A stretch of 64,000 nt of DNA from Phytophthora sp. 'mugwort'. Its lineage: Eukaryota > Oomycota > Peronosporomycetes > Peronosporales > Peronosporaceae. The DNA lies in assembly GCA_033558025.1 (NCBI GenBank), contig JAUCEF010000009.1, positions 2,356,001 to 2,420,000 of the forward strand, in the 5' to 3' direction. Position 1 is the stretch's first letter, and every line of letters starts with the position of its first letter. Position numbers and translations under genes: made by a program. The notes under the pieces were generated by a model. It was not told where the DNA came from, did no database searches, and was given only the letters and a program-made list of their open reading frames with translations. Of this stretch, positions 34,444 through 56,900 are shown in pieces.

Positions 34444-36495
34444 CCCTTTCAGTACCGCGGGCTGTATTCTACAGGATACAAAGCATGGTACACATCTCTC
34501 TAATGAAATATACAAACTTAAGTGAGCAACTCGGCATAAAGTTTTACAGTGATGTAGCTAACCTCGGGCCAATAATTCCCACCGTGGTATCTCAGTGGCG
34601 GGACTCATTTGTCGAGCAAATCTGGCCGCAGTTTCGCGCGCAAATTGCGCGCCTCCACCCCTCTCATTTAGAAACGCGCCGGCCCAAGCACACGTTCAAG
34701 TGACCATGACTGAGGAGCTGTCGTTCTCCGCTCTGTGGCGGAACCTTCGCGCCCGAGGCTGGCGTCACCAACCACCGCGTGGCCTCTCAACGTTGACAAA
34801 GTACTACACGCCAAAGGGCTGGGCTGATAAGCGCGGGGGGCGGAGCGATGCATGGACGTGTTCTGGGGCGAAGACGAGCTGCTAAGGTTCGTTCCTGAAG
34901 AATGTAAGTTCGCGGGTGGGCATGGTGCATCATAGCAGATCATGGGTGCCTGAAGCTATGTGTATGTGTGTGTGTGGTAGACGCTCTGAATCCCCCGTCA
35001 AAACGACCACAAACCAACGGCGACACGGCCGATCATGTTCTGCGGCAGGCAACCATACACCAACCCAATGCGAGTCGACCGCAAAGGCATGTGTCACCTC
35101 ATTCGCCGCACCTTCAGGATGATCTGTCAGCATCGATCTATTCTAGTTCTCCGCAAGTGCAGAGCGATGGTATCTCCACTGAGTCGCGCCCATCTCCCAC
35201 GGGTACACCAGTGCCAAGTACACCGCCAGTCCGCCGCGTATTAGCCATGACAACGCCTGGGCCAATCACACCAGCACCTCGTGGCGCCACTGCAGCGTCT
35301 ACGGTGGGAAAGGAATAAGCGGCCGCGATGCTTCGGACGAGGATGAGTTCATGGAATCTGGTGATGAGGAGGACTTCTGCGTGAACGATGAGCCTAGTAA
35401 TGACGACGGCGATGCGTTCATTCCCGAAGCCAGCGAAGCAGAAAGTGATGACGAGACGGAAGAGACCCCAGCAGCACCTGCTCCGAAAACGATGATGAGG
35501 CAGACCTGCTGCATCTGCTCTATGTGTCTGCGAGTTCCGAAGACATGTCGAAGGACGACTTACGTCAGCATACCAGCAAAGGCTGGGAGGTTCACATGGA
35601 GAACTCAAGTACGTTCGTCCGTGACAAATACAGGATAAGCTTTAGTCACCTGACTAACTTAACATGCCCATTATAGGCCGCGACGTTCGACTTCCTGCAG
35701 CGCAGCTTGAACAACGCGTGCGACTCCCAGCAAGATTGCAGAAGCGATTGGGCTAAATCTTGAGGGGCTCTTCTTCTTGATGCTCCCCAAAGAGATGTGG
35801 GTTCATATCGCGGATGAGACGAACACATACCAGCGCTGGCAGCGAAACCTTTCGCCAGGCCAGCTCGCGGAGTGTAATCAGCGCCGGCGCGCCCGCAATC
35901 CTTCATATCGCCCAAAGCGTCGTGCACAACGCGCGAGGGATATGGCGAAGTTCAAGGAGATCCAGCCCTACGAGTTAGTGAACTTCATTGGTCTGTTGTG
36001 CGCTAGAGCTTTGTGCCCTCATCGTGGAAAACTATCTCGTCACTGGGCTACAAACGCACAAGGTGCCGCACCTAGAGGCACTTTCGGGAGGTTCATGGCC
36101 CGGCACCGCTTCGAAGAGATTATTCGCTATCTCCACTTCAGTAGCAACGACGCTCCGGATGCTCGACGTGTGAAGACGTGAAAAATCAGCCAGTGTCAGA
36201 CACTATCAATGCAACATTCGCTGCTGGAATGACTGTGGGTCCTCGCATTGCATTGATAAAGGGATGATTCCAATGAGAAGCAGATTCAACCCGGTGCGGC
36301 AATAGCTCAGAGCAAAGCCCCACCCGTGGGGTACGATGTGCTACCGTACGTGCGACTCGGGCACCGGATATTGCTACAGAGCAGAGATATCAAGGCCGCG
36401 AGGAGGGAGACCGGAGGGATTTGCTGCTATCCGAGAATGCTGTTCTGCGTAATATGGACAACGTGCTGCAAGGCGAAAGAAATCGTCTTATAATA
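34444..36495 (+). mobile_element. Second piggyBac-like element, 3'-truncated
   Basis: A TTAA at 34440-34443 is followed by CCCTTTCAGTACCGCGGG, a plausible piggyBac-type left end. The transposase begins at 34706 and its homology stops at about 36.49 kb, where Polinton sequence begins. No right end is found in the window. Confidence 0.55.
34706..36490 (+). pseudogene. piggyBac-type transposase, truncated and broken
   Basis: N-terminal 'ELSFSALWRNLRARGWRHQP' (34709-34770), then a Pro/Ser-rich linker, an acidic block (34351-34370 aa-type 'MESGDEEDFCVNDEPSNDDG' at 35351), 'KEMWVHIADETNTYQRWQ' at 35788, and 'GRFMARHRFEEIIRYLHFSS' at 36090-36150. 'GMIPMRSRFNPVR' at 36262-36301 is the conserved block before the first catalytic region. 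'ENAVLRNMDNVLQGERNRL' at 36430-36490 is the last block seen. Stops occur at 35317, 36181 and 36304. It is a different lineage from the element at 28.2 kb, judging by the linker. Confidence 0.65.
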
Positions 36496-36496
36496 A

Positions 36497-37101
36497 AGCT
36501 ACGAAGTCTGTATATAATTCTAAAGCTACGCGATATTCTGATGCTCGGCCTAAATAAGAGGGTCGTGGTCTAAGAGGCGCTGGTGTAGTTCCATTGGATG
36601 GAGTAGTCAGACGCGGCAGAACCTCCAACTTGAATGAAATTCAGGGGTTAGCAACACCTAGTGCGCATGTGTATCGCCAGCTTGGTAGCACGTGCATTCG
36701 TTTTTCAGATCTGGATGCCAAAACACTCGTTAGTTGTTCAGCCTAACCGTCCGAAATGCGGTCCTAAACGCCAGATTACTGATAGTCTTCAAATCATGAT
36801 CAGAACTCTTGTATATAAACAAAACATTGACCAAGCTGCTTACGATAAGCTCAACATCGAGGACAAAAAAAATGTTTAAGGAGATCCTTGCCATCACCCA
36901 TCTCCAGTATAATTTCCACGAAAAGCTCGAGGACCCCCTTCAGACTCTACGAGCCGAGTATGATAGCTAAAAGAAGAGCTTGAATTAGGCAATGATGTTC
37001 CAAGCATCATAAAGCAGCTAAAGTCTCTCACTGTAGATATGTACAGCAATCAACTTATCAATGATAACAAATTTAGAGATATTATCACTCGCCTAGTATA
37101 G
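36497..37101 (+). pseudogene. Large Polinton hypothetical protein, C-terminal relic (arm A)
   Basis: Matches the arm-B protein at 54324-56900: 'GLRGAGVVPLDGVVRRGRTS', 'NEIQGLATPSAHVYRQLGS', 'VQPNRPKCGPKRQITDSLQ', 'ITHLQYNFHEKLEDPLQTL'. Frameshifts occur near 36565, 36730 and 36870 and a stop near 36968, and about 30 residues before GRGLRG are deleted relative to arm B. Function unknown. Confidence 0.75.
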
Positions 37102-37110
37102 TCAGAGATA

Positions 37111-37356
37111 ATGTTTTTCTTCAATCCGCGCATTATTTCAAGATCTGGCGGCAGCTATGGTGATAACGCTGACCTCAATGTTGCTGAACTTAAAGCGATC
37201 ATGAAGAACCTAATCATCAACAATCGACCTCAGAAGATACAGGCAGCTTTGTGGGCAACTGATTTAAACAAAACTAACAAGAAGGTGGATGCATCGACCC
37301 AGACTCAAGTTGGCGGAGTATGGGCTTACCAACCAAAGAAAGAAAAAAAACTGTAA
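37111..37356 (+). CDS. 81-aa Polinton protein (arm A, intact)
   Basis: Open frame starting MFFFNPRIISRSGGSYGDN. It has a short helix 'ELKAIMKNLIINNRPQ' and ends 'VWAYQPKKEKKL'. The arm-B copy (54320-54073) is frameshifted. It lies directly after the large hypothetical gene in both arms. No family recognised; conservation in both arms supports a real gene. Confidence 0.65.
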   Translation: MFFFNPRIISRSGGSYGDNADLNVAELKAIMKNLIINNRPQKIQAALWATDLNKTNKKVDASTQTQVGGVWAYQPKKEKKL

Positions 37357-37374
37357 AAACGTTTGCCATCTAAC

Positions 37375-37606
37375 TTATTCCATTTCTCGTGAGTTTATTT
37401 CGACATCCACGATATACGTTAATTTCTTATCACTAATACTAATCTCAAGTATTGCAGATTCATCATCAGGACTCTGTGTAGGGAGAAACACGCTATCACT
37501 TAAAAGTATGATTTGATCCGTTTTTCAATAAAGTCGAGCCAATGATTTGACTTGGTTCGTCGGTAGTCAAATTTGTTCTGAGGTCTTTACTCGGTCTGCA
37601 ACCCAT
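37375..37606 (-). pseudogene. MGCxxS (putatively myristoylated) protein, arm A, frameshifted
   Basis: Starts MGCRPSKDLRTNLTTDEP, aligned with the intact arm-B protein (53820-54059). A single-base frame change near 37530 separates this from 'DQIILLSDSVFLP' and 'AILEISISDKKLTYIV'. The downstream DUF5754-like gene of arm B is missing here; only about 85 bp separate this gene from the fibre stop. Confidence 0.7.
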
Positions 37607-37692
37607 GATTATATTAGTTCCAAAGAAATTGCTCAGCTGTACATTTGCTAGTATGGATCGCTTCGGTTCTTACCATTGTCAAAGAGCCTAAG

Positions 37693-39401
37693 CTTATCGT
37701 ATTATCGCTCGCTGATCCTCAATATCTTTAATTACGTACTGAATCATCTTCATATTGTATGCAGCTATACGACTATAATCAACGTTGAGTTGCTGTTTCG
37801 CTGGCTCAAGAGATGGGTCGGGTCCCGCTTCGATATCATCTCTATAGAAACGGACACCAAATCAGTCACATGTGCCGAGACGAGATCTTGGGTTAAGACT
37901 CCTACCTCCTGACCCGGACGATTCTCCGATTCAATCCAATCGTATAGGCAAACATCAATGCGATCATACCGTCGTTTGATACGATCAAGAGGTGCAATCT
38001 GAATATTCTTCTTAACGCGTCTGTCTGATGTCATAGCCATTAAAATGCAAGCTACGTAGCCTCCGAACACAGCACTAACGCTATAGCCTATAGGACCTAG
38101 AGCGCTCTCGGTCACTCCTGAGTCAGTCCTCAGTCTGTAGGCCGTACTACCACCCGTCCCGAACGTGAAAGAGACCACGCCAGGAATATCTAATGGACAG
38201 GAAGGAGAGGTCGTACCGATCACGACTCGGCCCCCGGCGGTCAAAATCATTTGAGTAGTATTACCTGTGCCGAATCGGAGATCAGTTGCCGAAATATTAC
38301 CGATCCATGATGCGTTTGTAGAAGTTCCAGCAGATCCATTAGATACCTCTATTTGGAGCTCGCATGGCGTTATGTTTGATCCGACGAATCGACACATCCT
38401 GGTATATGAGCCATCGAGGTAATCAAGCCCGCTACCTTTGATTTGAAAATACTCAGTCGTTAGAGTACTGTTTACACCAAGCTCTGTCAGACTACCTACC
38501 GTCGTTATGTAAGGTTGGTTGCCGTACCCTAAGAATCCATTGAGCAACCCACTCGAAATGATGTTGCCAGATACGCATAGAGAAGCTAGCGTACCAACAC
38601 TCGTAATATTAGGCTGAACGGCAGTCTGGAGAGTACCTGTAAGCGATGTGGCTGATATCGTACCAATATTTGAAATATTACGACTTGATGATATCACTGT
38701 AGCAGAACCGATTTGAAGCGATCCGAAGTCGCCAATCGTTCCAGTAGTCTTCGTAGTACCATTCATGGTAGCAGCTGATAATGAATTAACACCTGAGAAG
38801 TCTTTCATTGAATTGAGAACCATTGCCTTAGAACCAGTAGCACCGCCCTCTGTTATGCCGAGTTAGTACGTCTGATTAAATGTAGTGTAAGCCGATACGC
38901 CATCCCAAAACTTCAACGATGGTATCTGTATGCCTGTCCAGCTGTAGCCAGCGTCAGCGAAGAGAGAGTACCAACAGATGTAATTGATGGCTGAGCTGCT
39001 GCCCCCGTAAATGTTGGTAGCAGTGGGCGAGCTGATAGTAGCAATAGCGCCTGAGCCGTCAAGTACCAATACCTTTTCATTAGCGGCTGTACCTGGAGTG
39101 ATGCCCATTACATAATCAGGAGCAGATGACACATTGGAGCCGTTCACAGTTAGACAGCGACAAGATAGTGCCCAATGCCACCAATATCTCTGTTTGTACC
39201 CGGGACAAGGGCTATACCTTGTTTTTGGGTTCCTGGAGTAATACCGGGAATATAGGTTAGTCGGTAATCATTCTTGCGAATGTATAAAGTCTGCGCATAT
39301 TCGTATGTAAGATAACCATTAGCGTCTTACGACAGATAGAATTCAGGATTGTAGATCGGTGATATGAATATTGGCTGAGAATACGAGAAACCAGAACTCA
39401 T
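37693..39401 (-). pseudogene. Polinton fibre protein with S74 chaperone domain (arm A)
   Basis: Starts MSSGFSYSQPIF at 39401. A TAA interrupts at about residue 25 (arm B has a Leu codon there), and further frame changes occur near 39150 and 38850. The long middle has repeats of the type 'SLTGTLQTAVQPNITSVGT', common in viral and phage fibres. The C-terminus has the S74 motif 'MTSDRRVKKNIQIAPLDRIK' with 'DVCLYDWIESENRPGQEVGV', then breaks frame again near 37800. S74 domains help fold trimeric fibres and then cut themselves off. This copy is about 200 bp longer than arm B's, with more repeats. Confidence 0.8.
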
Positions 39402-39417
39402 GCTTGATTTTATCTCA

Positions 39418-39428
39418 ATCTATATAGA
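39418..39428. promoter_or_regulatory. CTATATAG-type box between divergent fibre and ATPase (arm A)
   Basis: CTATATAGAT lies in the 50-bp gap between the divergent fibre (39401) and ATPase (39452) starts. The same palindromic box sits at the same place in arm B (52038-52045), so it probably drives both genes. Confidence 0.5.
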
Positions 39429-39451
39429 TCCAGGGATAAAAAGACGCGACC

Positions 39452-40133
39452 ATGAGCGCTATTCCAGATTTGGTGCTTCGTTGCCGAAAACGTTCAAGTC
39501 TGCCGGCATGGGCGATATTCCTCCGCTTGACAATAAAAAGCTATTTAGAATGGTTATCCTTGGACCCTCATTCAGTGGGATGAACAACTTATGTATGTTC
39601 ATTCTCAAGCATTCTCCCTACGTATTTGCCTATTTAACGATTATTGCTCGTAACCCACATCAAGAACTGTATGAGTACCTTCGCGAGAAGCTTGAAGATT
39701 TCATTACTTCTGCTGGCCTAGATACACCCCAAAAGTTGATCAAGTACGTCATACACCCATGAGCTCCAATAAATCTGAGCTTGTTATCATAGACGACTAC
39801 AGCAACGACAAGCTACTCCAGAAGAATATATTTTCCCATTACTTTTCGCGCGGACGTCATTTCAAGTTGAGCACCATATTTCTAAGCCACAGATACTTCG
39901 CAACTGACAAGATTATTCGCTTGAATTCTGAATACGTAGCAATCTTAAAAGCCAATTCAAAGCGAGATTTACAGATGGTTGTCAAAGATATCAAGGGCGT
40001 AGATGATCGGTCAATTGTCTATTATTATAACAAGGCTACTGCACGAAAAGGTCAGATGCTTCTCATCGACTCTGTGAAGCGTCAAATCAGGTACAACTTT
40101 GATCAACCAGTCATGACTCAAGAACATGAATAA
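39452..40133 (+). pseudogene. Polinton FtsK/HerA-type packaging ATPase (arm A), broken
   Basis: The A32-like ATPase pumps DNA into the capsid. Three lesions: one base is missing just after the start (MSAIPD then frame change); the Walker A lysine is replaced by Met ('GPSFSGMNN', codon at 39580); and one C is missing from a C run at about 39730, which ends the frame at 39762 just before the Walker B half. Walker B ('ELVIIDDYSND') is intact, followed by 'KLSTIFLSHRYFATDKIIRL' and an Arg-finger-like region. The neighbour is the minor capsid gene, 36 bp downstream. Confidence 0.85.
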
Positions 40134-40169
40134 ATATCATCTAAATTAATGATAATGATATACTGCATC

Positions 40170-41033
40170 ATGGCGAGCTTCTTAAAAATCGATAGTACCA
40201 ATCTCGTAGCAGACGCATACAACTCGTCGTGGAAATATCAGTTTCCGGGATCGGCAGCTGACTTTCGCGATGTTGTATGCGCGATTCAATCAATCAGTCT
40301 CTCTAACAGTGAATACAATATCGATCCTATTCAATTCCAAAACTCGACATTCCAAGTCGAGGTTCCGACGTCTGCAATCACTTTTACCTCAGTATTACAC
40401 TACCAAATGGATATTATAGTTACGATGATATCAACCTAAGTACTCAGACAGCTCTCGTTAATGCCGGGGCCTATCTTATTGACGGATCTGGAAACAACGT
40501 ATTTTATATCAAACTAACTGAGAACAGTGTCTATTACGCAACTCAGATAGATCTCTCCTACTCTTTCGAGCCCTCCAGCTGGATACACGAGACCTGCTAC
40601 TGGACTGTACTCGGCTGGTGGTACTGGATTACCTACTACCACTCGCGTTCCGCGTTGAATCATCAATAGTGCTGCATTTGGTTCGGTACTTGGTCTTACT
40701 GTAGCTACTTATCCTTCTAACTCGGCGACAGTTGCAAGCGCTCAACTATCCAATATCATCCCACATATCCACCCAACTACTTGATATATTGTACGCTGTG
40801 ATCTGTTTAAAAACGAGTATGTTGCTTCTGGCGATATCTTAAGTGCCTTTGATAGAGGTGATGCCAGTATTGGTCAGCTGATCAACTATAAACCATCACA
40901 GTATGCGTGGATGAATTATTATAATGGTTCTCGATCAACGATTACTATCAGTATCTATAACCAAAATGACCAGAAGGTAAAATTCCGCGATACTTCAGTT
41001 TCGATCATGCTTTTGCTGAAACCAAAAAAATAA
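40170..41033 (+). pseudogene. Polinton minor capsid (penton-like) protein (arm A)
   Basis: Starts 'MASFLKIDSTNLVADAYNSS'. The frame breaks near 40400 and again near 40560 and 40785 (a TGA). Conserved blocks: 'KYQFPGSAADFRDVVCAIQS', 'ALVNAGAYLIDG', 'NVFYIKLTENSVYY', 'CDLFKNEYVASGDILSAFDR' and the C-terminal 'QNDQKVKFRDTSVSIMLLLK'. The position next to the ATPase and the size (about 285 aa) fit the single-jelly-roll penton of Polintons. The role is inferred from synteny; sequence alone is not decisive. Confidence 0.65.
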
Positions 41034-41061
41034 ACTTCTTTATTTAGTTTTCTCTACTAAA

Positions 41062-41819
41062 TCACATTCCAAAACTCCCCCCGGACTTCTTCATGGCCCG
41101 TATCTTCGCCATGTGATCCTTAGCTTCATGAGAACCCTTTGCAAACCTCTTACTATTTGGATTGGCAACGCCTACTCCATAGCGACGACGGACTTCACCA
41201 CGAAGCGTCTTAATCAAAGCACCGTGTTCAAGTTTGGTAGTTTTGCTCAGGAGAGTTTTTTCTCCAGCATCGACAGCGTCTGTAAGAATCCCCTTATGCT
41301 TCGTGTAAGCGAGAGCACGTTTGGCTCCTTTCTTAACATCAGCCATCGTTAGACGTCCTCCAAGATCATTAGTATCACTGTCGCTATCATAAACACCGAT
41401 ACCAGCCATAGAGCGGATGGCAGCTCTCGCTGGAATTGCACCGTGTGGAGCTCCGATGCGGTTGCAAAAGCGGGAACAGCTGCATCAGCAACACAAAACA
41501 AAATCCCAGAATCCTTTGCGAATTTGAAAGCGGATTTTACTCCTCCCCATATTTTTGACCAAATGCTCGCTCCGGGCATGCCTCCTCCTTGCATGTGCTT
41601 AAACGGATAGCCGATCGCTTTGTGTGTGGTAGCTAAACGCGTTCCTTTACCAGATTTGTTAGCTCGAAGAGCTTTAGCGTATGATTCAGGATGAAGATGA
41701 AGCGTAGCACCAGAACCATTCAACTCATCTTTATTTAAGGATAGAGTTCCGGTCTTGAACGCTTGCTTGAGCTTTGTCTCTGGAACCGACGCTGAAACTG
41801 CTAGTTTTTTTAATTTCAT
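41062..41819 (-). pseudogene. pX-like basic virion core protein (arm A)
   Basis: Two overlapping frames (41819-41349 and 41409-41062) together match the intact 244-aa arm-B protein: 'TKLKQAFKTGTLSLNKDELN', 'ASIWSKIWGGVKSAFKFAKD', 'GVYDSDSDTNDLGGRLTMAD', 'LIKTLRGEVRRRYGVGV'. The frame change is near 41400. The small, Lys/Arg-rich protein with a hydrophobic middle resembles the adenovirus pX/pVI-type core proteins in layout. Confidence 0.65.
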
Positions 41820-41929
41820 GATTATATCTCATGACTGATTTATTATTTAAGGAATGGTTAAATTCAAGTCTTTGAATCGGCTCAATAGTCCAATCTTATT
41901 GTTTTTTTGCAATACAACCAGAGCATGCA

Positions 41930-42226
41930 TCATACACCGCAATAGTCTCCATAAGTACCTTGATACTGTTTGGGATTGTACTTTCCGGTTCCATACTTGG
42001 TAAGAGCTGCTTCGCCCATACTATCGAAGTATTCTCCTTTATGAACAGCTGTCCAATGACCTACATCAAGGTTAGGAGGCCTTAATAAGACCAAATATGT
42101 ACCTTTCTTTAGAAGCAGTTTCGACTTTTCATTCGATTCAAATATTCCATCCATTTGTACTCCAATTCGATCTGCAACCTCAATAAGATCGTGGTCGCTG
42201 GTGATCGGTTTAATGAGATCGCTCAT
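41930..42226 (-). pseudogene. Adenain-like maturation protease (arm A), truncated
   Basis: Cysteine protease that matures the capsid. 'NLDVGHWTAV' holds the catalytic His, 'YFDSMGEAAL' the acidic residue, and 'YGDYCGV' the catalytic Cys. The frame stops one codon after the Cys-Gly-x, whereas arm B continues 'CGPFCILWL'; the sequence beyond the stop still reads like the missing tail. The gene is divergent from the major capsid gene, 50 bp apart. Confidence 0.75.
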
Positions 42227-42276
42227 AATATTTAATTTTTCAATGAAAGTATATTAGAAACCATATAGATTCAGCA

Positions 42277-43995
42277 ATGAGCGAAACTCAACTATCCGAC
42301 AGTATTTGTACCAGAGCTCGCTGCAAAAGCGATTCAGAGATCAAGGTATCTTCTGGCAAACGCGTACCTTTTGTGATCGATCTGAATCAAGGTTCGTATC
42401 AGAATGGTTTTATCACTATCCCTAACGATGCTACGGCTCAGCTAAACGGCTCTGAAGGATTTTGCGTGTTTTCCCGATGCATACATTATGCTCCCATACA
42501 AGGTCTCGATGAAAAATGGTGCTACTGCTCAGATCGCTGCTGCAATCGCTTGTGTGCTACTTTGAAGTGTGGCAACTGGAATGTCATCGATAGTATGTCT
42601 CTGGAACTCAATGGCAAGACCATTGTCTCGATGGCTGATTACAAGCTGTTTTGAAACAATGTCTGCGCTCAGACAAGCTACAGCCCTCAGTACGTTGAGA
42701 AGCACGGAGCTGAATAATTCCTTATCCGGATGCCACTCAGTCAGCTTTGTACAGCTCAGCTACAAGCTCGACTACTGGCGATGGATACACAAACACTACT
42801 GCCTTCTCATCTTCGTTCGCTACAACTGGTCCCTCTGGTGGAGCCTCCATCGCTAACGATGGCCTTGTAAAGCATCTGTTGTCGAACCATCAAACGCTAG
42901 ATCTGATTCTCCACGTCGTGGCCTTCACTTGGTGTGCTGCAGCTTCTACCACAATCTCAAATCAACTGGCACGTAGTGACTTCGTAACTGGCGTCGCCAT
43001 GGCTAATGGAATTATGGGTACGTGGAACTACATGCTAAAGGTAAAGCTAACTAATCTTCACCCTATCTTTAAGGAGTTAGATCTCATGGCGAACCACCAA
43101 ATCCGCCTCCGCTTCCGAGTCAATCAGGGTACCTCTAATATTGCCGTGGATGCTTGGAAAGGTATGTCTCTAACCAGCACTACTCTTGCCTCTGATAATA
43201 CCTGTCTAATTATGGTTTTTGCTTCTTCTACTGGGAGTCCGATGGCTGGAGTCCTTGCTTCTTCTGCGGGGTTCAGTATTCTTGGATGCTGTTGTCAATG
43301 CGCTCGAGCCTACTGTTGATGATACTTACATGTCTTTTACCACTTCGCGTCTTTACGTTCCGTTTGTGCATCTTGAGAACCCTCAAGCGATCATCTCAAA
43401 GCCAGTCAAGAAAATTCGGTTTAATGATAGCTATGATCAGTGGTTCTACCAGCGCGCTAGCACTGGTAAGCAATCGACTCAACTTAATGCTGCATTTGAT
43501 CTCCAGCTATCGGCTTCTATTAAGAATGCAAAGTATGTAATCTTGATGCTTTTTGCCGAGCAAACTGGTAGTTATGCTTCAGCAGCAGTTCAGGAGTTCC
43601 AAAGTCCTTTCGATTTAGCTCCTTGGACTCTCCACCCCGGATCCAGTATTAGAAGCTTTAATGTTCGTATCGGTTCCCAGCAGACCTTCGATATCAGCCA
43701 TGACTACGATTTCCACCACTTCACTAATGAGGTAGCTAAAATCGCATCGATCAATGGTGATCTCACCCCTGAGTTGGCTAATGGTCTTCTTGGCTATCAG
43801 ACATGGTCTCCAACTAACCGTGTTCTCATTGCTGACGTTAGTCGTCTAACAGAGCGTGATGTCCCCCAAGCGATTCAGATCCAAGGTGTGAATGCTGGAT
43901 GCAGGGGCACCAATATATTAGTATTGGTTGTGTCCGAACAAGAACTAACCTTCGATAGACTAATTGGGGAGGTATTAGACTATATCACAGCTTAA
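42277..43995 (+). pseudogene. Polinton major capsid protein, double jelly-roll (arm A)
   Basis: Starts MSETQLSDSICT. Three open pieces (42277-42654, 42747-43319 in part, 43219-43995) cover the same 570-aa span as arm B. Conserved blocks: 'IKVSSGKRVPFVIDLNQGSY', 'MSLELNGKTIVSMADYKLF', 'SRLYVPFVHLENPQAIISKP', 'ADVSRLTERDVPQAIQI' and the C-terminal 'ELTFDRLIGEVLDYITA'. Frame changes lie near 42470, 42655, 42960 and 43290. The C-terminal 258 aa are open. MCP assignment rests on size, synteny and motif order. Confidence 0.75.
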
Positions 43996-44003
43996 GAAAA
44001 AAA

Positions 44004-44266: not shown

Positions 44267-44345
44267 GTTATCAGTTGGGTGTATCTATTCTATATACATA
44301 GCCCCTTATTTTTTGAGAAAATTTAGCTAATTAGGGAGGTGCATG

Positions 44346-46390: not shown

Positions 46391-46399
46391 ACTGATAAC

Positions 46400-47417: not shown

Positions 47418-47466
47418 ACCAATCATATATATTTTGTTCAATCAAATGATAACTAAAGGTTTTCTA

Positions 47467-49184
47467 CTAAGCTGTGGTATAATCAATCACTTCCCCAGTT
47501 AGTCTATCAAACGTTAGTTCTTGCTCACTCACAACCAAAACAAGCATGTTTGTACCCTGGCAACCAGCGTTCGTACCAGAGATCTGAATGGCCTGAGGAA
47601 CATCACGTTCGGTTAGATGACTGACATCAGCAATTAGAGCACGGTTAGTTAGCGACCAAGTCAGATAGTCAAGAAGACCATTCACCAGCTCGGGAGTTAG
47701 ATCACCATTAGTCGAAGCAATCTTAGCGATTTCGTTAGTGAAGTGGTGGAAGTCGTAGTCATGGCTAATATCGAAGGTCTATTGCAAATCAATGCGCACG
47801 TTGAAGTTTCGAATCGAACTGCCGGGGTGGAGCGCCCAGGGCGCCGAGTCGAAAGGACTCTGAACTTGCTGTACAGCTGCAGAAGCAAAACTACCAGTCT
47901 GCTCAGCGAATGGAAGGAGAATGACATACTTAGCGTTCTTGACAGAGGCTGATAGCTGTAGATCAAATGCAGCATTAAGCTGAGTCGATTGCTTACCAAT
48001 ACCAGCGCGCTGGTAGAACCATTGGGCATAGAAATCGTTGTAGCGAACCTTCTTAACAGGCTTAGAGATGATAGCCTGAGGGTTCTCCAAATGAACGAAA
48101 GGGACATACAGACGAGACGTAGTGAAAGGCGTGTAGGTACCATCAATTGTAGGCTCAAGCGAATTGACAACAGCACCCCAAGAAACGGCCAAGGAACCAA
48201 CACCAGAAAATGCACTGTACATTCAATTTGGGCTGGTCGCAGAAGCAACCATCACTGGACAGATATTACCGCTCGATAGTGTAGTACTCGTTAGCGTCAT
48301 TCTACTGGAGCTATCAATATCAATAGCTGAAGTACCCTGATTAAAGCGGAAACGATGACGGATTTGTGGGTTAGCCATCAAGTCAAGCTCCTTAAATACT
48401 GGATGGAGGTCAGTTAATTTGACTTTTAGCATGTAGTTCCACGTCCCCATAATAGACCAGCTGTACCAGTGCCAGCTACGAACGCACCACGACCAAGTTG
48501 ATTAGCAATGGTAGTGCTTGCAGATGCGGCACCCGTTAACGGTCACGTCGTAGATGAGTCAGCTCCAGTATTTGGAGGGTTTGAAAGAAGGCGCTTCGCA
48601 AAACCATCATTTTCAACCGACGCTGTAGCAGAAACAGTATCGGCGACAAAGGTGGTCGAGATTGAAGTGTTATTCGAATACCCGTCTCCAGTAGTAGCGG
48701 CAGAACCACTGTACTTGGTTGATTGAGCAGCATCCGGGTATAGAAACGATTCAGTACCATGCTTCTTAACATACTGAGGGCTGTATCCGGTCTGAGCGCG
48801 GATATTGTTCCAGAACAGCTTATAGTCTGCCATCGAGACAATAGTCTTACCATTGAGTTCAAGCGACATCGAATCGATGACGTTAAAGTTGCCACACTTT
48901 AGACTGACCCAGAATCGGTTGGCTGGAGCCTGTGCATTTGTAGCGTGCGTGTTCTTCATCGAAACCTTGTATGGTAGCATAATGTAAGCATCGCGGAGGC
49001 AGGCAAATCCTTCACTACCATTAAGCTGGGACGTAGCATCGATAGTGATAACTCCGTTTTGGTATGAACCTTGGTTAAGGTCGATAACAAAAGGCACGCG
49101 CTTGCCAGAGGAGACCTTAATCTCCGGATCACTCCTTAGCGAGCTCTGGTAAAGGTATTGTTCGAAAAGTTGTGTTTCAGACAT
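47467..49184 (-). pseudogene. Polinton major capsid protein, double jelly-roll (arm B)
   Basis: Open pieces 49184-48543, 48450-48223, 48222-47779 and 47685-47467 cover the same span as arm A. Starts MSETQLFEQYLYQSS; 'GFACLRDAYIMLPYKV' and 'FWVSLKCGNFNVIDSMSLEL' are complete here but broken in arm A. Frame changes are near 48540, 48222 and 47770, at places different from arm A. The last piece ends 'RLTGEVIDYTTA'. Confidence 0.78.
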
Positions 49185-49231
49185 CGTTGAATCTATATCT
49201 CGAACAATATAGTTTTGTTAAATTAATTATT

Positions 49232-49609
49232 ATGGAGCTCGTCAAGCCTATCACATCCGATCATGATCTCATTGAACTTGCCAAGCGTATTGGGGTTCAC
49301 CTCGATGATATCTTTGAGTCAAGTAGATCACAAATCCGCTTCCGAAGAAAGGTTCATATCTGATTTTGCTACGACAACCCGATATGAATGTAGGACACTG
49401 GGTTCGTGTTTGTGATAATACTTACTTTAATAGTATGGGTGAAGCAGCTCCTACGAAGTTTGGAATAGGCGATACAATCCAAAACAGTTCCAAGGTACTT
49501 AGGAGACTATTGCGGACCATTTTGCATTCTGTGGCTTTACTCAAAGCAACACAAGCAACCTAATTTATTCAAAAATATGAAAGATCTAAATTTGACAATT
49601 CTTACATAA
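49232..49609 (+). pseudogene. Adenain-like maturation protease (arm B), frameshifted
   Basis: Starts MELVKPITSDHDLIELAKRI. Three single-base changes (near 49330, 49455 and 49500) break the frame. Catalytic blocks remain readable: 'NVGHWVRV', 'YFNSMGEAAP' and, in a third frame, 'YCGPFCILWL'. Divergent from the capsid gene, with TATAT/ATATAG boxes in the 47-bp gap. Confidence 0.75.
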
Positions 49610-49632
49610 AATGTTTCAGGCTATATAGCAAA

Positions 49633-50367
49633 ATGTATCGCGAATTAACGATTTCGAGCGATGTTCCAGCTCCCAAGCTGGCCAAAGCTCTCAAGACAGG
49701 TAAGCTAAGTCTGACAGCTGATCAACTCAAGGGCAGTGGCTCTGTTATCCATCTTCATCCAACCTCTTACGAGAAGGCGATCAAAGCTCGCAAGGCAGGT
49801 CGCGGCGTGCGTCTTGACATTACCACACATGAAATTAAGAAGGGTTATAAGCGAGCCCAAGGAGGATCCATTTGGAGTAAAATCAAATCGGGTTTATCAA
49901 GTGCCTTCAAATTCGTTAAAGATAGCGGTTTGCTCAGCAGGGGGCTGGATGCGGCAGTGCCAGCTCTTGCGACAGCGTTTGGAGCCCCTCAAGCAGCAAT
50001 CACCGCAAGAGCAGCTATTAAGTCATTGACAGGAGTTGGTCTATACGACTCTGACAGCGATGTAGAGAAAGAAGGTGGACGTATTTCGGTGGCTGATGTT
50101 AAGAAAGGGGCTAAGCGTGCTCTATCCTACGCTAAACGAAAGAGTGTTCTAACCGATGCGGTCGATGCGGGGGAGAAGTATCTACTATCAAAAGCAACCA
50201 AGCCAGAGCATGAGAGCCTGATCAAATCGATTCGAGGTGAGGTAAAGAGACGTTATGGTGTAGGAGTACCTAAGAAGAAACCAGCAAAAGGCAGTCCAGA
50301 AATGAAAGCTAAGATGGCCGCTTTGGGTGCTAAGCGCAAGAAAGCAATGGTTGCTGGGTCCTTTTGA
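49633..50367 (+). CDS. pX-like basic virion core protein (arm B, intact)
   Basis: 244 aa. N-terminal 'APKLAKALKTGKLSLTADQL' then 'VIHLHPTSYEKAIKARKAGR'. A hydrophobic/amphipathic middle: 'GSIWSKIKSGLSSAFKFVKD', 'GLLSRGLDAAVPALATAFGA'. Then 'GVGLYDSDSD' and a Lys/Arg-rich C-terminal third ending MVAGSF. The layout resembles adenovirus-type core or membrane-lytic minor proteins and is common next to the protease in Polintons. This is the longest intact virion gene in the two arms. The box GGCTATATAGC lies 12 bp before the ATG. Confidence 0.7.
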   Translation: MYRELTISSDVPAPKLAKALKTGKLSLTADQLKGSGSVIHLHPTSYEKAIKARKAGRGVRLDITTHEIKKGYKRAQGGSIWSKIKSGLSSAFKFVKDSGLLSRGLDAAVPALATAFGAPQAAITARAAIKSLTGVGLYDSDSDVEKEGGRISVADVKKGAKRALSYAKRKSVLTDAVDAGEKYLLSKATKPEHESLIKSIRGEVKRRYGVGVPKKKPAKGSPEMKAKMAALGAKRKKAMVAGSF

Positions 50368-50425
50368 TTAAATTAATTCTTCCTACGCGAACGAACGAAC
50401 CAAAAAAAAACGTTTTATTTTTTTC

Positions 50426-51300
50426 TTATTTTTTTGGACGAAGCAGAAGCATGATCGAGACAGAAGTGTCGCGGAACTTAACCTTCTGATCGTTTTGATT
50501 ATAGATACTGATCGTGATTGAGGTGCGCGCTCCATTATGACAGTTCATCCAAGCATACTGACTCGGCTTATAGCTGTTAATTGACCAACTTGAGCATCGC
50601 CGCGATCAAATGCACTAAGAATATCACCGGACGCGACATATTCGTTTTTGATCAGGTCGCATCGAACAATGTAAGAAGATGTAGGATGAATCTGAGGAAT
50701 GATATTTGAGAGCTGAGCACTTGAAACCGTTGCAGACGCTGAAGGATACGTACCAGCAGTCAGTCCTACTACCTTCCCAAAAGAGGCGTTGTCGATGATT
50801 AGGCGTGGGACACGAGTCGTCGTAGGGAGACCAGTACCGCCTGAGGAATAAAGATCACTTGCCGGTCGTGCCCAAGTGCCACCAGCCGTAGGAAGTGTCG
50901 TTGGAGTAGCGCTAAAATCGAACTGAGCCGCGTAATGAACGCTGTTTTCCGTTAGTTGAATATAGAAAACGTTCTCACTAGATGGGTTAATTAAATAAGC
51001 TCCGGCGTTTACGAGAGCTGTCTGAATGCTTCGATTGATATCAGTATAACTGTAAAGTCCATCAGGCAAGCTAACAGATACAATGGATGTGGTTCCAGCG
51101 GTTGGAATCTCAATTTTGAAGGTATTGTTCCAGAATTGAGCTGCGTCAATGTTGTACTCAGCATTATACATCGAGATCGATTGAACTGCGCACGCTACGT
51201 CCTTAAAATCGGCAGCACTACCAGGAAAGCCGTATTTCCATGTGCTGTTGTAAACGTCTTGAACGAGGTTAGTGGAATCGAGTTTAACAAAACTTGCCAT
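50426..51300 (-). pseudogene. Polinton minor capsid (penton-like) protein (arm B)
   Basis: Starts MASFVKLDSTNLVQDVYNST at 51300 and is open for about 250 aa. One base is lost near 50580 relative to arm A, ending the frame at 50545; the last 40 residues ('NDQKVKFRDTSVSIMLLLRP') continue in another frame to 50426. Features: 'KYGFPGSAADFKDVACAVQS', 'PDGLYSYTDINRSIQTALVN', 'PRLIIDNASFGKVVGLTAGT', 'CDLIKNEYVASGDILSAFDR'. Beta-rich and the right size for a single jelly-roll penton. Confidence 0.68.
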
Positions 51301-51339
51301 TGTATTGGTGTATATTGATTCACCCAAAATATTTCCAAA

Positions 51340-52023
51340 TTATTGCTCAATATCGATCGGCTTATCGAAATTGTACCGAAGCTGACCTTTGACTGAATCC
51401 ACGAACAACATCTGTCCTTTACGTTCAGTCGCCTTATTGTAGTAATATACAATTGATCGCTCATCAACACCCCTAATATTGAAATCCATGACAACCATGA
51501 CCAAATCACGTTTCGAGTTAGCTTTTAGGATAGAAACGTACTCAGCATTCAAACGAATCATCTTATCAGTGGCAAAGTAGCTGTGAGATAGGAATATAGT
51601 ACTCAGTTTGAAAGGGCGTCCGCGAGTAAGATAATGTGAGAAGAGATTCTTCTGAAGTAGCTTATCATTGCTGTAATCGTTTATGATCACAAGCTCAGGT
51701 TTGTTAGAACTCATCGGTGTCCGACGGGCTTAATCAACGCTTGGGGGTGAATCAGGGTCAGCGAAGGTAATGAAGTCTTCCAACTTATCGCGCAAATATT
51801 CGTACAATTCCTGATGAGGATTACGTGCAATGATCGTTAGATGCGCAAAGACGTGTGGAGAATGCTTGAGAATGAACATACAGAGGTTGTTCTTCCCTGA
51901 AAACGAAGGTCCCCACACAATCATTCTGAATAGTGATTTGATATCCAAATCAGGGATATCTTTCATCGATGCCGACTTGAACCTTTTTGGCAAGGATGCA
52001 CCGAAATCTGGAATACCGCTCAT
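51340..52023 (-). pseudogene. Polinton FtsK/HerA-type packaging ATPase (arm B), one nonsense codon
   Basis: Starts MSGIPDFGASLPKRFKSASM. Walker A 'GPSFSGKNN' keeps its Lys (codon 51894-51892). A TAA at 51732-51730 interrupts the otherwise continuous frame (arm A has CAA at this place). Walker B reads 'ELVIINDYSND', with the first Asp of arm A's D-D replaced by Asn. 'TIFLSHSYFATDKMIRLNAE' follows. It is divergent from the fibre gene. Confidence 0.87.
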
Positions 52024-52056
52024 GATTATCGTTTGATCTATATAGGATTAAACAAA

Positions 52057-53555
52057 ATGAGTTCTGGTTTTTCATATCCACAGCCAAGTTTTCAATCATC
52101 CATCTATAGCCCCGCGTTCTATCTCTCATTAGATTCAAGTGGCTATCTAACTTATGACTATGCACAGACACTATATTTGAGTAAGGATGACTACAGGATG
52201 AGCTACCTTAGTGGAGTAGTGCCCGGAACGGCATCGATAGGATCTGTTCTCGGTGCTTCGGGTAATATCTCCGGCATTTCATTGCTAAGTGCCACTAACC
52301 TTACTGGTACGCTACAAACAGCTTCCCAACCGAATATCACTTCGGTTGGAAATTTATCGTTCAGTGGATCATCGCGCTCGATATCGATAACAGGCGCATC
52401 TAGCTACATCGATTGTCGAGAATATCGCCAGAACGGGACTATGTAAGATTTAAGCCTTCTTGAATACATAAGTGGAGTTAGTTTTGGTAGCGCGACGGCA
52501 AATAAATTTTTACTATGCGACTCGAGTTTAAATATCGCAAATACTAATATGTATCGGCAAGTACAATTAGTTGCACGAACTTACGACAGGGTTCGACGTA
52601 TTATGATCTCTCCAGCTTTTTGACGAGCGTCCCGAGCTCGCTGTCATTATCAAGCCTATATACGACCGGAAACATCGATTGTGGCGGGTTCATCAATGGG
52701 TTCTTAGCATATGGCAACCAAGCAAACATAATAACAGTAGGATCACTGACAGAGCTCGGTATCCACTCCACACCAACGAATGAGTATTTCTCGATAAAGG
52801 GCTCGGGCTTTGACTATCTGGATGGCAGTTATACGCGAATGCTTACGTTTTCGGGATCAAACATAACTCCCGTCCGGTTCCAAATTGAAGTCCATAATGG
52901 AACTAATTCCACAAGTAGCAACGCGTCATGGATCGGGAACATCACAAACAACGACCTCAGATTTGGGGTCAATAACTCGACGTCGATAATCCCAACTACG
53001 ACAGGGCGTCTTGGGCTTGGTACTACAAGTCCTTCAGCTCCACTGCACGTCCCTGGCAGCAACAATTTTGTATTTGGAGCAGGCGGAACGACAGTGTATC
53101 GTCTCAGAACAGATAGTGGAGCTACAGAATCCGCTCTTGGTCCGATCACATATTCTATGGCGGCTATATTCGGAGGATACATCGCCTGTACAGCCATGGC
53201 GATGACGAGCGACCGCCGATTGAAGAAGAACATCCAGATTGCACCACTCGAACGCATCAAGAGTCTCTACGATAACTGTGATGTAGTTTTGTATGACTGG
53301 ATCGAATCGGAAAATAGACCTGGTCAAGAGGTAGACCTCATAGCTCAAGACCTTGTCTCAGCCCACCTAACCGAATTAATCAGTGTCTTCTATCGCGATG
53401 ATATTCAGGAAGGCGAAGACCCATCGCTTGAACCTGCCAATACGCAACTTAACGTTGATTACAGTCGGATTGCTGCATACAACATGAAAATGATTCAACA
53501 TATTTTGGGTGAGATAGATAGGTTAATAGATCGTTTGGCTAATATAGAATCATGA
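52057..53555 (+). pseudogene. Polinton fibre protein with S74 chaperone domain (arm B)
   Basis: Starts MSSGFSYPQPSFQSSIYSPA. Open to 52446, then broken over about 170 bp, then open 52620-53555. Repeats 'NLTGTLQTASQPNITSVGNL' and 'LGYGNQ/LAYGNQ' units build the shaft. The C-terminal S74 domain is complete: 'MTSDRRLKKNIQIAPLERIK' with the Ser and Lys of the self-cleavage site, 'DVVLYDWIESENRPGQEVDL', and a coiled-coil end 'YNMKMIQHILGEIDRLIDRL'. Its stop overlaps the next ATG (ATGA). Confidence 0.82.
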
Positions 53556-53809
53556 GGATTGAGCGCTGGGAGTTGAGTCCATTGAGTTCCAAGAAGTATC
53601 GAGTATGGATACGCCTTGATACTGGAAAGCTACGAAAGATTGATTTTGGAGCGAATGGCTATGCTCATTATCGGGATCAAACCCCTTTGAAATCATACTC
53701 ACACCTTGATCACAACGACCCAGAGCGCCGTAGGAGATATTATCTACGACATAAAGTTGATTATCCTCCGTATAGTGCCGATTTTATGACGAAAAAATAT
53801 CTCTGGTGA
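53552..53809 (+). CDS. DUF5754-like small protein (intact)
   Basis: 85 aa with 'SSKKYRVWIRLDTGKLRKID', 'FGANGYAHYRDQTPL', then 'DPERRRRYYLRHKVDYPPYS'. The 'hxFGAxGYxxYxxH.d..R+..Y..RH' pattern is that of a small protein family (DUF5754, named from memory) shared by giant viruses and their relatives. Translationally coupled to the fibre by an ATGA overlap. It is absent from arm A. Function unknown. Confidence 0.65.
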   Translation: MRIERWELSPLSSKKYRVWIRLDTGKLRKIDFGANGYAHYRDQTPLKSYSHLDHNDPERRRRYYLRHKVDYPPYSADFMTKKYLW

Positions 53810-53819
53810 ACGATATACA

Positions 53820-54059
53820 ATGGGTTGCGTACCAAGTAAAAAACTCAAAACGAATTTAACTACTGATGAACCAGGTCAATTCGTTGGATCAACGATCATG
53901 CACGCTGATCAGATCGTAGCTCTCGGAGATAGTGCATTCGTCCCTATCAGAGACGCGAAGACGGGTGAAGATGCGATAATGGAAATACATGTCGGAGAGA
54001 AAAAAATCAGTATATACCGCGGAATGGCAAATAGAGCCGTTAGATCTGGTATTGCTTAG
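53820..54059 (+). CDS. MGCxxS protein, putatively myristoylated and palmitoylated (intact)
   Basis: 79 aa starting MGCVPSKKLKTNLTTDEP. Gly2 with Ser at position 6 and Cys3 fits the N-myristoylation/palmitoylation consensus, followed by basic residues. The rest is a small alpha/beta unit ('IVALGDSAFVPIRD', 'IMEIHVGEKKISIY'). 10 bp after the DUF5754-like gene. Arm A has a frameshifted copy with the same MGC start. A membrane-associated virion or assembly role is inferred. Confidence 0.6.
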   Translation: MGCVPSKKLKTNLTTDEPGQFVGSTIMHADQIVALGDSAFVPIRDAKTGEDAIMEIHVGEKKISIYRGMANRAVRSGIA

Positions 54060-54072
54060 ATAGCACAAGTCT

Positions 54073-54320
54073 TCACAGTTTTAGTCTTTTTTTCGGTTGG
54101 TAAGCCCATACGCGACCACCCTCTGTCTGAGTCGATGCATTAACCTTCCTGATAGACTTATCAAGGTCAGTAGCCCAAACAGCTGCCTGAGTCTTCTGTG
54201 GGCGGTCATTGATGATGAGATTCTTCATGATAGCTTTTTGAGCTCAGCGACGTTAAGATCGGAGTTGTCTCCATAGCTACCGCCTAAGCTGGAAATGATT
54301 CGGGGATTGAAGAAGAACAT
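54073..54320 (-). pseudogene. 81-aa Polinton protein (arm B), frameshifted
   Basis: Starts 'MFFFNPRIISSLGGSYGDNS'; two extra A in an A run near 54238 shift the frame relative to the intact arm-A copy. The rest ('NLIINDRPQKTQAAVWATD', 'VWAYQP') is readable in the next frame. Confidence 0.7.
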
Positions 54321-54323
54321 GAT

Positions 54324-56900
54324 TTATAATAGACGCGTGATAATTGCCTTGAACTCTTTATCATCAATCATTCGATTGCTGTACATATCCACACTAAGCG
54401 ATTTTAGTTGCTTGATGATTGAAGGATTATCATTACCGAGTTCGAGCTCACCTTTTAGCTTATCATATTCAGCTTTTAGAGATTCTAACGGATCCTCAAC
54501 CCGATCATGAAAATTGTACTGAAGATGAGTAATCGCGAGAATCTCCTTGAAAAGCTTTTTGTCATCAATACTGAGCTTGTCATACTCTGCCTGATCGATA
54601 TGTTGTTTAAATGCAAAAGTTCGAATCATTGACTGTAGCGGATCACTGATTACGCGCTTTGGACCACATTTACGACGATTGGGTTGAACAATCACAAGGG
54701 TTTTGGCATCAAGATCAGGAATTCTGATATACTTACTACCCAGCTGACGATAGATGTATGCCGATGGGGTGGCTAAGCCTTGAATCTCATTGAGATTGTA
54801 GGTTCTTCCGCGGCGAACTACACCTTCCAATGGAGCAACACCCGCCCCTCTAAGACCTCTTCCTTTAAGCTTCCTCTTAACTCCCATGCCCGTTGTGCTT
54901 AAATGATCAACCATGTTATTCACAGTTTGCCGAACCGAGCGTTCGTCTTGTCTATCACTGAATTGATCAACCTCGGTGTAGTTTTCAGCACCGGAGTAGC
55001 TTTTAGCCTTGATTTGATAGACAGCCTTGGTAGCTTTCATGGCAGCGGTTGCCGCCTTCAACGCTGATCTTGCGGATTTTGAGTTATTACCCTTTATTGC
55101 TTCGCCTCATCGTATTTCCTCTGAGCTTCGCCATACTTCAGGAATGCGGCTTCTGACTCATCGTGGAGTTTTTTCAAAGTGTCATCGCGATATTGGGGAC
55201 CCTCAGAGGATTTATTTCGAGCTGATGTATCTGTCGATTTTGTATTGTGGAGGATGGCTCGATTCAATAGCTGAAGATTAGCTTCGAGATTTTATTTCAA
55301 TGCTGGATCATCATTCTCATAAATGTATCGCTCTAAGTCTTCAAACCCGGTCATTAAGCTATTGAAAGTGTCCATCCATCTAATGGTTTTCATAAGATCG
55401 TTGAAAACCTTGCCAGAAACTGCTTTGTTCTCGTGGTTTCTAATGTAAAATGGTTTTGCTGCGGTAGGCTCACTAAAGTAGTAATTTTGATTAGCTTTCA
55501 CACCACTTTTGGTATCTACTATTGGTTTCAGTCTAAAAGGAATTCGAACTCCTTCAGATACTGTTTTTGCTGTAGTAGTCCATAAGAATCCTCTTCGCAT
55601 CGTTATCAGCATTAGTTAGTGAACTATTCATATCTTCATCAATTCCAATCAATTCCATGGCGAGCCTCACCATTGCGTGGTTCAAAGGCCTTTGCAAGTT
55701 TGGTGGTGTCTTCGTTAGTAAATAGATCGACATCGTCGCGATCTTTCACTAAATCGATAAATTCTTGGAATGTTGATCTCCAATCAACTTTTTTAGTAAT
55801 CGCGGGCTTGACTCTCCCACTATCAATACCAAATACACTAATTGATGAACCATCAATCCACACGTATCCAGTTTTATCCATCTGAGACGTTTTACCCGTG
55901 CTCTTGAGGATAGGAATGATTTTCTTTTTCAAACCAGTCGACTCAAGCACTGCCTTATTCTTGAAAATAGACCAAAGCAATCGATTCTTACTATCAATTT
56001 GATCTAGTGAGGTTGAAGTCGATGTATCAAACTCGAAGCTGTCTTCAAGACGTTGCTTTGTACGGCTGCCTAATCACCTTCACTTGGATCGGCAATTTTT
56101 CGTTTTCGCGTCAGTGAAGCGTGATAAAGAGGGTCTTCAAGTCTCATATAACTGCTCTCATCGATTGATTTACTTTCGCCATCATACCAGATGTCCCTAA
56201 TCTTCTCCTCTGTAGCCACCCAGTCAATCGATTGATAAGTCTTACTCTTTCTATCCGTGTTGGCTGCAATTAATGAGCCCTATTCACCAAGAAAGTATCT
56301 ATTGTCATCCTTACCAGTTTGCGCTTAATTGGCTTAATTCGAAGCGCTACCCAATTAAAATTGGCGTTAAACAAATTCTTAACCCATGATCGCGCCTCCA
56401 CTTGATCTTCGGTATCTACTAATCTAATTTTCGTGTTAGTTTCAGCTTCCGCCGTTTGTGGAGTACCATCAGTTCCAATATCAGATGTTTGAGGCGATAC
56501 ATTTACTCCAGAATCAGATGTTTGAGGACGAGCTTGAACGTTTCTATCTGAGGTATCAGGGCGCACATGAACCCAACCGTCAGTCATTCTTGGTTCAGCA
56601 TCAACTTCAGCATCGATCATCACAGGTCGAATATTTGGAGTTGAGACCTCAGGGTTTGTTTGGGAGTATCCATCAATCAGTGTTTTTTTAAGGACTCAGC
56701 AGACTCGGATGAGTTTGTCTGAGTTAATTCGGTTGATTTCTTAGGGACTGTAGTAATCCCATTCGTGATATCACTTGCCCACGAAGCACCTTCGTACATC
56801 CCTCGCTTGGCTTTAGCTTGTCGAACGCGGCGTGAGCTCTTTCAAGAAGCTCCTGCCGTTTTTGCTCTCTCTGAGCGAGCGATGTAAAATTTGGAAACAT
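54324..56900 (-). pseudogene. Large Polinton hypothetical protein (arm B)
   Basis: Begins MFPNFTSLAQREQKRQELLE at 56900, just after a CTATAT box. Readable blocks continue through several frames: 'EGASWASDITNGITTV', Thr/Gln-rich 'DTSDRNVQARPQTSDSGVN', 'SWVKNLFNANFNWVALRIKP', 'GYVWIDGSSISVFGIDSGRV', 'RIPFRLKPIVDTKSGVKANQ', 'DDTLKKLHDESEAAFLKYGE', and the open C-terminal 245 aa (55061-54324) with 'GLRGAGVAPLEGVVRRGRTY' and 'YIYRQLGSKYIRIPDLDAKT'. If one gene, it was about 850 aa. No family recognised. Breaks near 56750, 56270, 55990, 55630, 55290 and 55080. Arm A retains only the C-terminal part. Confidence 0.6.

What the first reader, a model, noticed from the sequence alone, without database searches (positions are those of the whole stretch)
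36495..55100. Two diverged Polinton virion modules in inverted, head-to-head order
Ten genes of arm A recur in arm B in exactly reversed order and orientation, around a 2-kb non-Polinton spacer. Protein blocks are clearly homologous but differ at many positions, and gaps differ, so this is not a recent inversion-duplication or an assembly palindrome. Either two Polintons inserted end to end, or one element carried a dimeric, inverted form that aged in place. Both arms share the ExoX-C-like end next to the spacer, which argues that this is a terminal region of each copy.
Basis: partly seen in the sequence, partly recalled or inferred. Interest (0 to 1): 0.8.

Follow-up and report, generated by a model that had tools for sequence, protein, structure and literature searches.

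The report
Two neighbouring Polintons inserted facing ways
Two different virus-like jumping elements landed about 1.6 kb apart in opposite directions in the genome of a Phytophthora-like oomycete, so the striking mirror image is most likely an ordinary neighbourhood of two insertions rather than one doubled element.

Summary
The mirror-image gene order is real. Arm A (about 36.5-44.54 kb) and arm B (46.13-54.9 kb) are homologous in reverse, 66-78% identical in DNA in the six long blocks. Best explanation: two separate Polinton insertions.

B is one end of a complete element, about 46132-64731, running 731 bp past the window, with an inverted repeat at each end and a 6-bp target duplication. 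Its joined flanks align through the junction to a related locus that lacks B (70% of 674 columns, E 5e-95). A is the capsid half of a second element with an intact right end; its left half is missing.

A and B carry different terminal repeats, alike only over the outermost 37-65 columns; each of the 40 end loci fetched (45 of 60 ends) is of one type or the other. In a 24-row capsid-gene tree A lies in a 7-copy clade without B (100/100). Differences between the arms are mostly synonymous (dN/dS about 0.08, 836 codons): they arose before insertion, not by ageing in place.

The genome's listed capsid matches merge to 133 copies; one close facing pair is about what chance gives.

The parts
36495..44541 (+). 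Element A: capsid half of a Polinton, left part missing; right end intact
   Evidence: Homology to B from 36558/36567; by eye, similar translation back to about 36460; A-type terminal repeat at 44511-44541
44511..44541 (+). A right terminal inverted repeat core (A-type)
   Evidence: 0 mismatches to the pattern, which was taken from the window; 60 sites genome-wide at up to 3 mismatches, 0 in the reversed control
44542..46131 (.). Spacer of non-Polinton DNA between the two facing ends; parts recur at C8, C12, C14, C17
46126..46131 (+). B left target-site duplication ATCATT (right copy in L017:732-737, i.e. 64732-64737)
   Evidence: empty-site alignment
46132..64000 (+). Element B: complete Polinton, 46132 to about 64731 (last 731 bp lie in L017, C9:2420001 onward)
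   Evidence: both terminal repeats and TSD
46132..46162 (+). B left terminal inverted repeat core (B-type)
46400..46708 (+). ExoX-like C-terminal domain ORF of B; counterpart 44052-44276 (-) in A
   Evidence: PF20600 E 2.2e-19; homology
46777..47307 (+). GIY-YIG/homing-endonuclease-like ORF, B only
   Evidence: phrog_314 E 4.4e-7; Pfam GIY-YIG E 0.044, below cut-off; no convincing counterpart in A
47470..49211 (-). Major capsid protein gene of B (interrupted)
   Evidence: homology; capsid identity from relatives
42250..43992 (+). Major capsid protein gene of A (spread over three ORFs in two frames)
51343..52005 (-). Packaging ATPase (A32-like) of B; counterpart 39469-40130 (+) in A
   Evidence: Pox_A32 E 0.0051 in B, below cut-off; E 1.8e-5 in A, above cut-off
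52620..53555 (+). S74/tail-fibre-like protein of B; counterpart 37765-38823 (-) in A
   Evidence: PF13884 E 1.2e-5 in B and 6.7e-6 in A
54076..55061 (-). Gene at the inner edge of the shared block in B; counterpart 36558-37353 (+) in A, cut off at A's left edge
57407..58437 (-). Integrase region of B with chromodomain
   Evidence: PF00385 E 8.4e-7; rve/rve_3 in the homologous stretch of neighbouring element C
58485..62465 (-). DNA polymerase B region of B, broken into overlapping frames
   Evidence: PF03175 E 4.5e-5, 23 bits, below cut-off; 90-94% identical over the long pieces to L004, whose open frame passes the PolB cut-off
35780..36181 (+). DDE_Tnp_1_7 (piggyBac-type, from memory) transposase piece at A's truncated edge
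   Evidence: PF13843 E 1.9e-9

Best explanation
Two Polintons of two related but distinct lineages inserted independently, in opposite orientation, about 1.6 kb apart in a repeat-containing stretch of an oomycete chromosome. Each insertion followed the usual Polinton route (inferred from the known family): a linear element with terminal inverted repeats is joined to the target by its retroviral-type integrase, leaving a 6-bp duplication. The capsid ends happened to face each other, so the shared capsid-side genes read as a mirror image. A lost its polymerase/integrase half. Shown here: terminal repeats of both, target duplication and empty site of B, separate lineages, divergence under selection. 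Inferred: the insertion mechanism itself, and that A also arrived by direct insertion at its present right-hand junction. The order of the two insertions is unknown.
For: Terminal repeat ends at 44541 (A) and begins at 46132 (B), facing each other; 60 such sites in the genome, 0 in the reversed control. The 40 fetched end loci (45 of 60 ends; the 15 others lie in the C12 array) split into 15 A-type (with A) and 25 B-type (with B); across types only 37-65 columns align. B has both ends and TSD ATCATT, the right copy after an extra ACT triplet; of 13 L-R pairs, 8 have exact 6-bp duplications at the printed boundary, a ninth (C13) if one terminal triplet is missing. B's flanks joined with one TSD copy align across the junction to L062, 70% of 674 columns, E 5e-95 (the two flanks already abut there, with default scoring). 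Capsid tree of 24 rows: A in a 7-row A-type clade, 100/100, B outside. A-B differences 162/124/425 by codon position, dN/dS 0.084 over 836 codons. Chance count of facing pairs this close 0.17-1.1 for 118-300 copies scattered over the whole genome; one seen.
Against: A's own target duplication cannot be tested because its left end is gone, and no empty site for A was found (the first ~335 bp of the spacer had no match elsewhere). No read data. B's right TSD is offset by 3 bp. In 4 of 13 L-R pairs no exact duplication is seen even with a triplet shift. B's capsid block does not group with the bulk of the B-type copies but on a long branch beside the A clade, although B's polymerase pieces are 90-94% identical to those of a B-type element on C5.
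Confidence: 0.94

Rival explanations
1. One element in a dimeric inverted form, or an inverted duplication, that diverged in place.
For: Reversed gene order and facing ends; terminal 39 bp nearly identical.
Against: Different terminal-repeat types, separate capsid lineages, dN/dS 0.084, TSD and empty site for B alone. The terminal tip is near-identical in the 45 ends printed, so it is family-wide conservation.
Confidence: 0.01
2. A variant of the best reading: two separate elements, but A was placed beside B by a rearrangement with a breakpoint at A's left edge, rather than by inserting directly next to this spacer. (It overlaps with the best explanation, so the odds do not sum to one.)
For: A is truncated at about 36.5 kb beside a transposase piece; no TSD or empty site for A.
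Against: A ends precisely at its terminal repeat at 44541, as a direct insertion would.
Confidence: 0.1
3. Assembly artefact (false join or palindrome).
For: No reads available to check; the genome also has near-identical Polinton segments on C12 that would be hard to assemble.
Against: Arms only 66-78% alike in the long blocks; B's two flanks match one continuous sequence elsewhere, which a false join would not produce. This does not test A's junction.
Confidence: 0.02

Closest known systems
Polintons/Mavericks with rve integrase and protein-primed PolB
   Same: Size about 18.6 kb, terminal inverted repeats, 6-bp target duplication, PolB and integrase regions, A32-like ATPase, double-jelly-roll capsid protein (in a relative)
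   Different: No protease detected with Pfam in the ORFs scanned; ORFs decayed
Oomycete-integrated Polinton-like viruses, 'Gossevirus group' (PMC7805220, passages seen) / GKS1 clades (PMC12220804, passages seen)
   Same: Oomycete host; capsid relatives in many Phytophthora species; PMC7805220 reports terminal repeats in seven integrated elements, three with target duplications, and RVE plus pPolB in four oomycete elements
   Different: Group membership not tested by tree here
Mavirus (virophage)
   Same: rve integrase and an S74-family protein are listed for Mavirus in PMC3671162 (passages seen); capsid fold match 6g45, E 2.4e-11
   Different: Distant: 10% identity in the fold alignment, and the sequence profile found no capsid entry in the PDB

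Membership tests
Polinton/Maverick | Terminal inverted repeats at both ends | tested here: met
   B: 46132 and L017:698-728, B-type, 86% over 181 columns. A: right end only
Polinton/Maverick | 6-bp target-site duplication | tested here: met
   B: ATCATT both sides with a 3-bp offset on the right, empty site. Not testable for A
Polinton/Maverick | Family B DNA polymerase (protein-primed) | tested here: met
   B: PF03175 E 4.5e-5, below cut-off; B's pieces match L004 (open frame, over cut-off) at 90-94%. Genome: 12 matches, 11 marked over the cut-off, 2 of them only with neighbours in the frame; 0 of 14 control genomes. A: region missing. Protein-priming not tested
Polinton/Maverick | Retroviral-type (rve) integrase | tested here: inconclusive
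   Chromodomain in B; rve 29.8 bits (below cut-off 32.6) and rve_3 26.6 (above 26.5) in the homologous stretch of element C; B itself not scored for rve over its broken frame
Polinton/Maverick | Double-jelly-roll major capsid protein | tested here: met
Polinton/Maverick | Packaging ATPase (A32-like) | tested here: met
   A: Pox_A32 24.8 bits, above cut-off 22.8; B: 16.8, below
Polinton/Maverick | Adenain/C5-type cysteine protease | tested here: inconclusive
   No Pfam cysteine protease in the ORFs scanned; several short ORFs not scanned and frames are broken
Oomycete Gossevirus/GKS1-group PLV | Position in a capsid-protein tree with that group | not tested
   Group sequences were not fetched; the named homologues among the 120 of 189 listed are Phytophthora and one Plasmopara

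The most novel reading that the evidence does not exclude
Polinton integrase, helped by its chromodomain, might steer new insertions towards chromatin already marked by other Polintons, so that clusters like this one (A, B, a polymerase piece and element C within about 80 kb of C9) are targeted rather than random. The one count made here gives no excess of close neighbours (5 seen, about 6 expected outside the C12 array).
Probability: 0.05. Interest if true: 0.5.

Novelty: new member of a known kind. Interest (0 to 1): 0.2.

Why it matters
Mostly as a clean worked example: mirror-image Polinton modules can arise from two insertions, and end type, capsid tree, codon positions, target duplication and empty site together tell that from an inverted duplication. 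It also adds a genome with over a hundred Polinton capsid-gene copies and pieces and two terminal-repeat lineages.

Tried and rejected
Rejected: in-place ageing of a dimer; palindrome artefact (identities). Clustering excess: outside the C12 array 5 neighbouring capsid copies lie under 40 kb apart, against roughly 6 for a uniform scatter of 118 copies (my arithmetic), so no support for self-targeting. A's missing half was sought with B's polymerase-side ORFs in window 1-36.5 kb and in C9:2346001-2356000: no match. Rfam at gathering threshold: 0 matches in the window. The capsid profile against PDB sequences gave only rows of E 0.015 and worse to unrelated proteins. What the spacer is remains unsolved: 0 Pfam families in its three ORFs scanned; ORFs of its relatives were not scanned, as one search failed and was not repeated.

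Papers: (Polinton with head-to-head) listed 4 papers; in the one opened, PMC12721341, the phrase refers to gene order inside an element (passages); the other three were not opened. One search showed 15 of 255 papers and one search showed 12, five; from these only PMC8204020, PMC12220804, PMC7805220 and PMC3671162 were opened, passages only. I make no claim that such a pair is absent from print. That Polintons leave 6-bp duplications through their integrase is recalled, with support from a passage of PMC12220804 (5-6 bp). That DDE_Tnp_1_7 is the piggyBac family is recalled.

One codon block was out of frame; the numbers used are those. One search stopped on an error after printing translations; the rest was redone. 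The empty-site alignment used lenient scoring (match 1, mismatch -1, gaps 2/2); with default scoring shows the two flanks apart (163 columns, E 1.6e-13; 515 columns, E 1.2e-51). L062 also carries stretches within the spacer part that the spacer lacks.
Full report
WHAT IS THERE. The window is C9:2356001-2420000 of an 86.26-Mb, 154-contig genome. The nearest relatives of an intact capsid ORF of this genome (L071) are an unnamed JGI record (97%) and a Phytophthora rubi protein (95%), followed by proteins of many other Phytophthora species (120 of 189 hits listed), so the host is almost certainly a Phytophthora-like oomycete; the species was not identified. Translated self-comparison and blastn show A 36567-44321 and B 54857-46352 homologous in reverse, in seven blastn pieces: six of 196-2139 columns at 66.1-77.8%, and one of 45 columns at 95.6% at the facing ends. 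The shared genes, from the facing ends inwards, include an ExoX-like C-terminal ORF, the major capsid protein, genes without Pfam names, an A32-like ATPase, an S74/tail-fibre-like protein and a further unnamed gene.

THE ENDS. The 45-column pair is the terminal inverted repeat: A ends ...ATTACTACT at 44541, B starts AGTAGTAAT... at 46132. A pattern from this repeat, with up to 3 mismatches, occurs 60 times in the genome and never in the reversed control. Forty end loci holding 45 of the 60 ends were fetched; the 15 left out all lie in the C12 array. With 220 bp from inside A's end as query, 14 loci besides A match over 168-233 columns at 80.7-93.2%; with B's end, 24 loci besides B match over 149 columns or more; no locus is in both sets, and across types 37-65 columns align. 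So A and B carry the ends of two lineages, and the near-identity of the facing tips is a family-wide feature.

B IS A COMPLETE INSERTION. A repeat of B's type, in the opposite sense, lies at 64698-64728 (L017:698-728; 4 mismatches; 86% over 181 columns with B's left end). B's left flank ends ATCATT; after the right end come ACT and then ATCATT. An extra terminal triplet fits variation in the number of AGT/ACT triplets, seen also at C13, where one triplet fewer gives a perfect AACGCT duplication (read). Of 13 L-R pairs, 8 have an exact 6-bp duplication at the printed boundary, nine with C13; the other four are C14:2771207 (5 of 6), two copies of one C12 segment, and C18. The spacer's last 160 bp and B's right flank match adjoining parts of one C14 locus, L062; joined with a single ATCATT they align to it without a break at the junction (674 columns, 70%, E 5e-95, lenient scoring). 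I read this as the pre-insertion site in a related repeat copy.

A IS A SEPARATE, TRUNCATED ELEMENT. Its left edge lies near 36.5 kb inside a gene that is longer in B. A DDE_Tnp_1_7 transposase piece lies just outside. B's polymerase-side genes have no match in window 1-36.5 kb or in the 10 kb before the window. Its right flank is ATGATG; the partner is lost.

AGE OF THE DIFFERENCES. In eight gap-free coding blocks (836 codons, one further codon pair skipped for a stop in B), differences fall 162/124/425 on codon positions 1/2/3, pS 0.705, pN 0.157, dN/dS 0.084; B has one in-frame stop in these blocks, A none. The arms therefore diverged while their genes were under selection, before insertion. 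Synonymous change is near saturation, so the ratio is approximate. In a DNA tree of a 705-column capsid block (24 rows), A and six other A-type copies form one clade (100/100); A's best identity is 94.1% (a C4 copy), to B 78.0%. B sits outside that clade on a long branch and does not group with the bulk of the B-type copies. B's polymerase pieces, by contrast, are 90-94% identical in protein over the long stretches to those of the B-type element on C5 (L004). So B may be a mosaic, with its capsid half and polymerase half of different history; this was not tested further and does not affect the two-insertion reading.

CHANCE. One search reports 154 capsid matches; 150 typed rows merge to 133 copies or pieces, 118 outside the C12 array. 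The A-B pair is the only converging pair with capsid starts within 4.2 kb. A uniform scatter gives on average 0.17 (118 copies), 0.26 (150) or 1.1 (300) such pairs over the whole genome, and 0.34, 0.57 or 2.3 if only 40 Mb is available. One pair is unremarkable.

WHAT KIND. PolB (weak in B; strong by relation to L004), chromodomain, rve in the homologous stretch of element C, A32-like ATPase and a capsid protein whose predicted fold (relative P0002, mean pLDDT 65.6) matches Sputnik, mavirus and other double-jelly-roll capsid proteins place these elements among Polintons/Polinton-like viruses. Integrated relatives in oomycetes, some with terminal repeats and target duplications, are in print (PMC7805220, passages), as are Polintons beside PiggyBac elements in a P. 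parasitica contig (PMC8204020, passages).

VERDICT. Ordinary, so scored low.

Noticed in passing
G000:C12:2332452-2547096 (L052, L072 partly): 15 Polinton ends in one orientation at regular 13.15/13.27-kb, then 13.9/15.4-kb steps (about 26.4 and 29.3 kb per capsid copy), followed by 2 in the other orientation: a tandem array of Polinton pieces over 200 kb. Whether real or assembly-made is open; more unusual than the finding itself.
   Followed up: partly
L049, L051, L052, L053, L054 (C12): Five copies of a facing Polinton pair with a spacer of about 7.03 kb, spacers 98.99-99.89% identical and in both orientations, i.e. a duplicated segment.
   Followed up: partly
46132-64000 against L004 and L046: B looks like a mosaic: polymerase pieces 90-94% identical in protein to the B-type C5 element, but capsid block only 73.5% in DNA to that element's (broken) copy and 80-82% to most other B-type copies.
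   Followed up: partly
C9:2431196-2433529 (L018) and C9:2452100 onward (L068, L070): Two further Polinton pieces downstream of B: an integrase/polymerase fragment and a third element with a B-type left end.
   Followed up: partly
46777-47307: GIY-YIG/homing-endonuclease-like ORF between the ExoX-like ORF and the capsid gene of B, with no convincing counterpart in A.
   Followed up: partly
52620-53555 and 37765-38823: S74 (endosialidase chaperone) domain with phage tail-fibre similarity in both elements; it differs more between A and B than the capsid block does.
   Followed up: no
62684-62787: Short inverted and tandem copies of TTAAGTTCGGTTTCACC beside the polymerase end of B.
   Followed up: no
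28504-29121 and 35780-36181: Two DDE_Tnp_1_7 (piggyBac-type, from memory) transposase pieces left of A.
   Followed up: no
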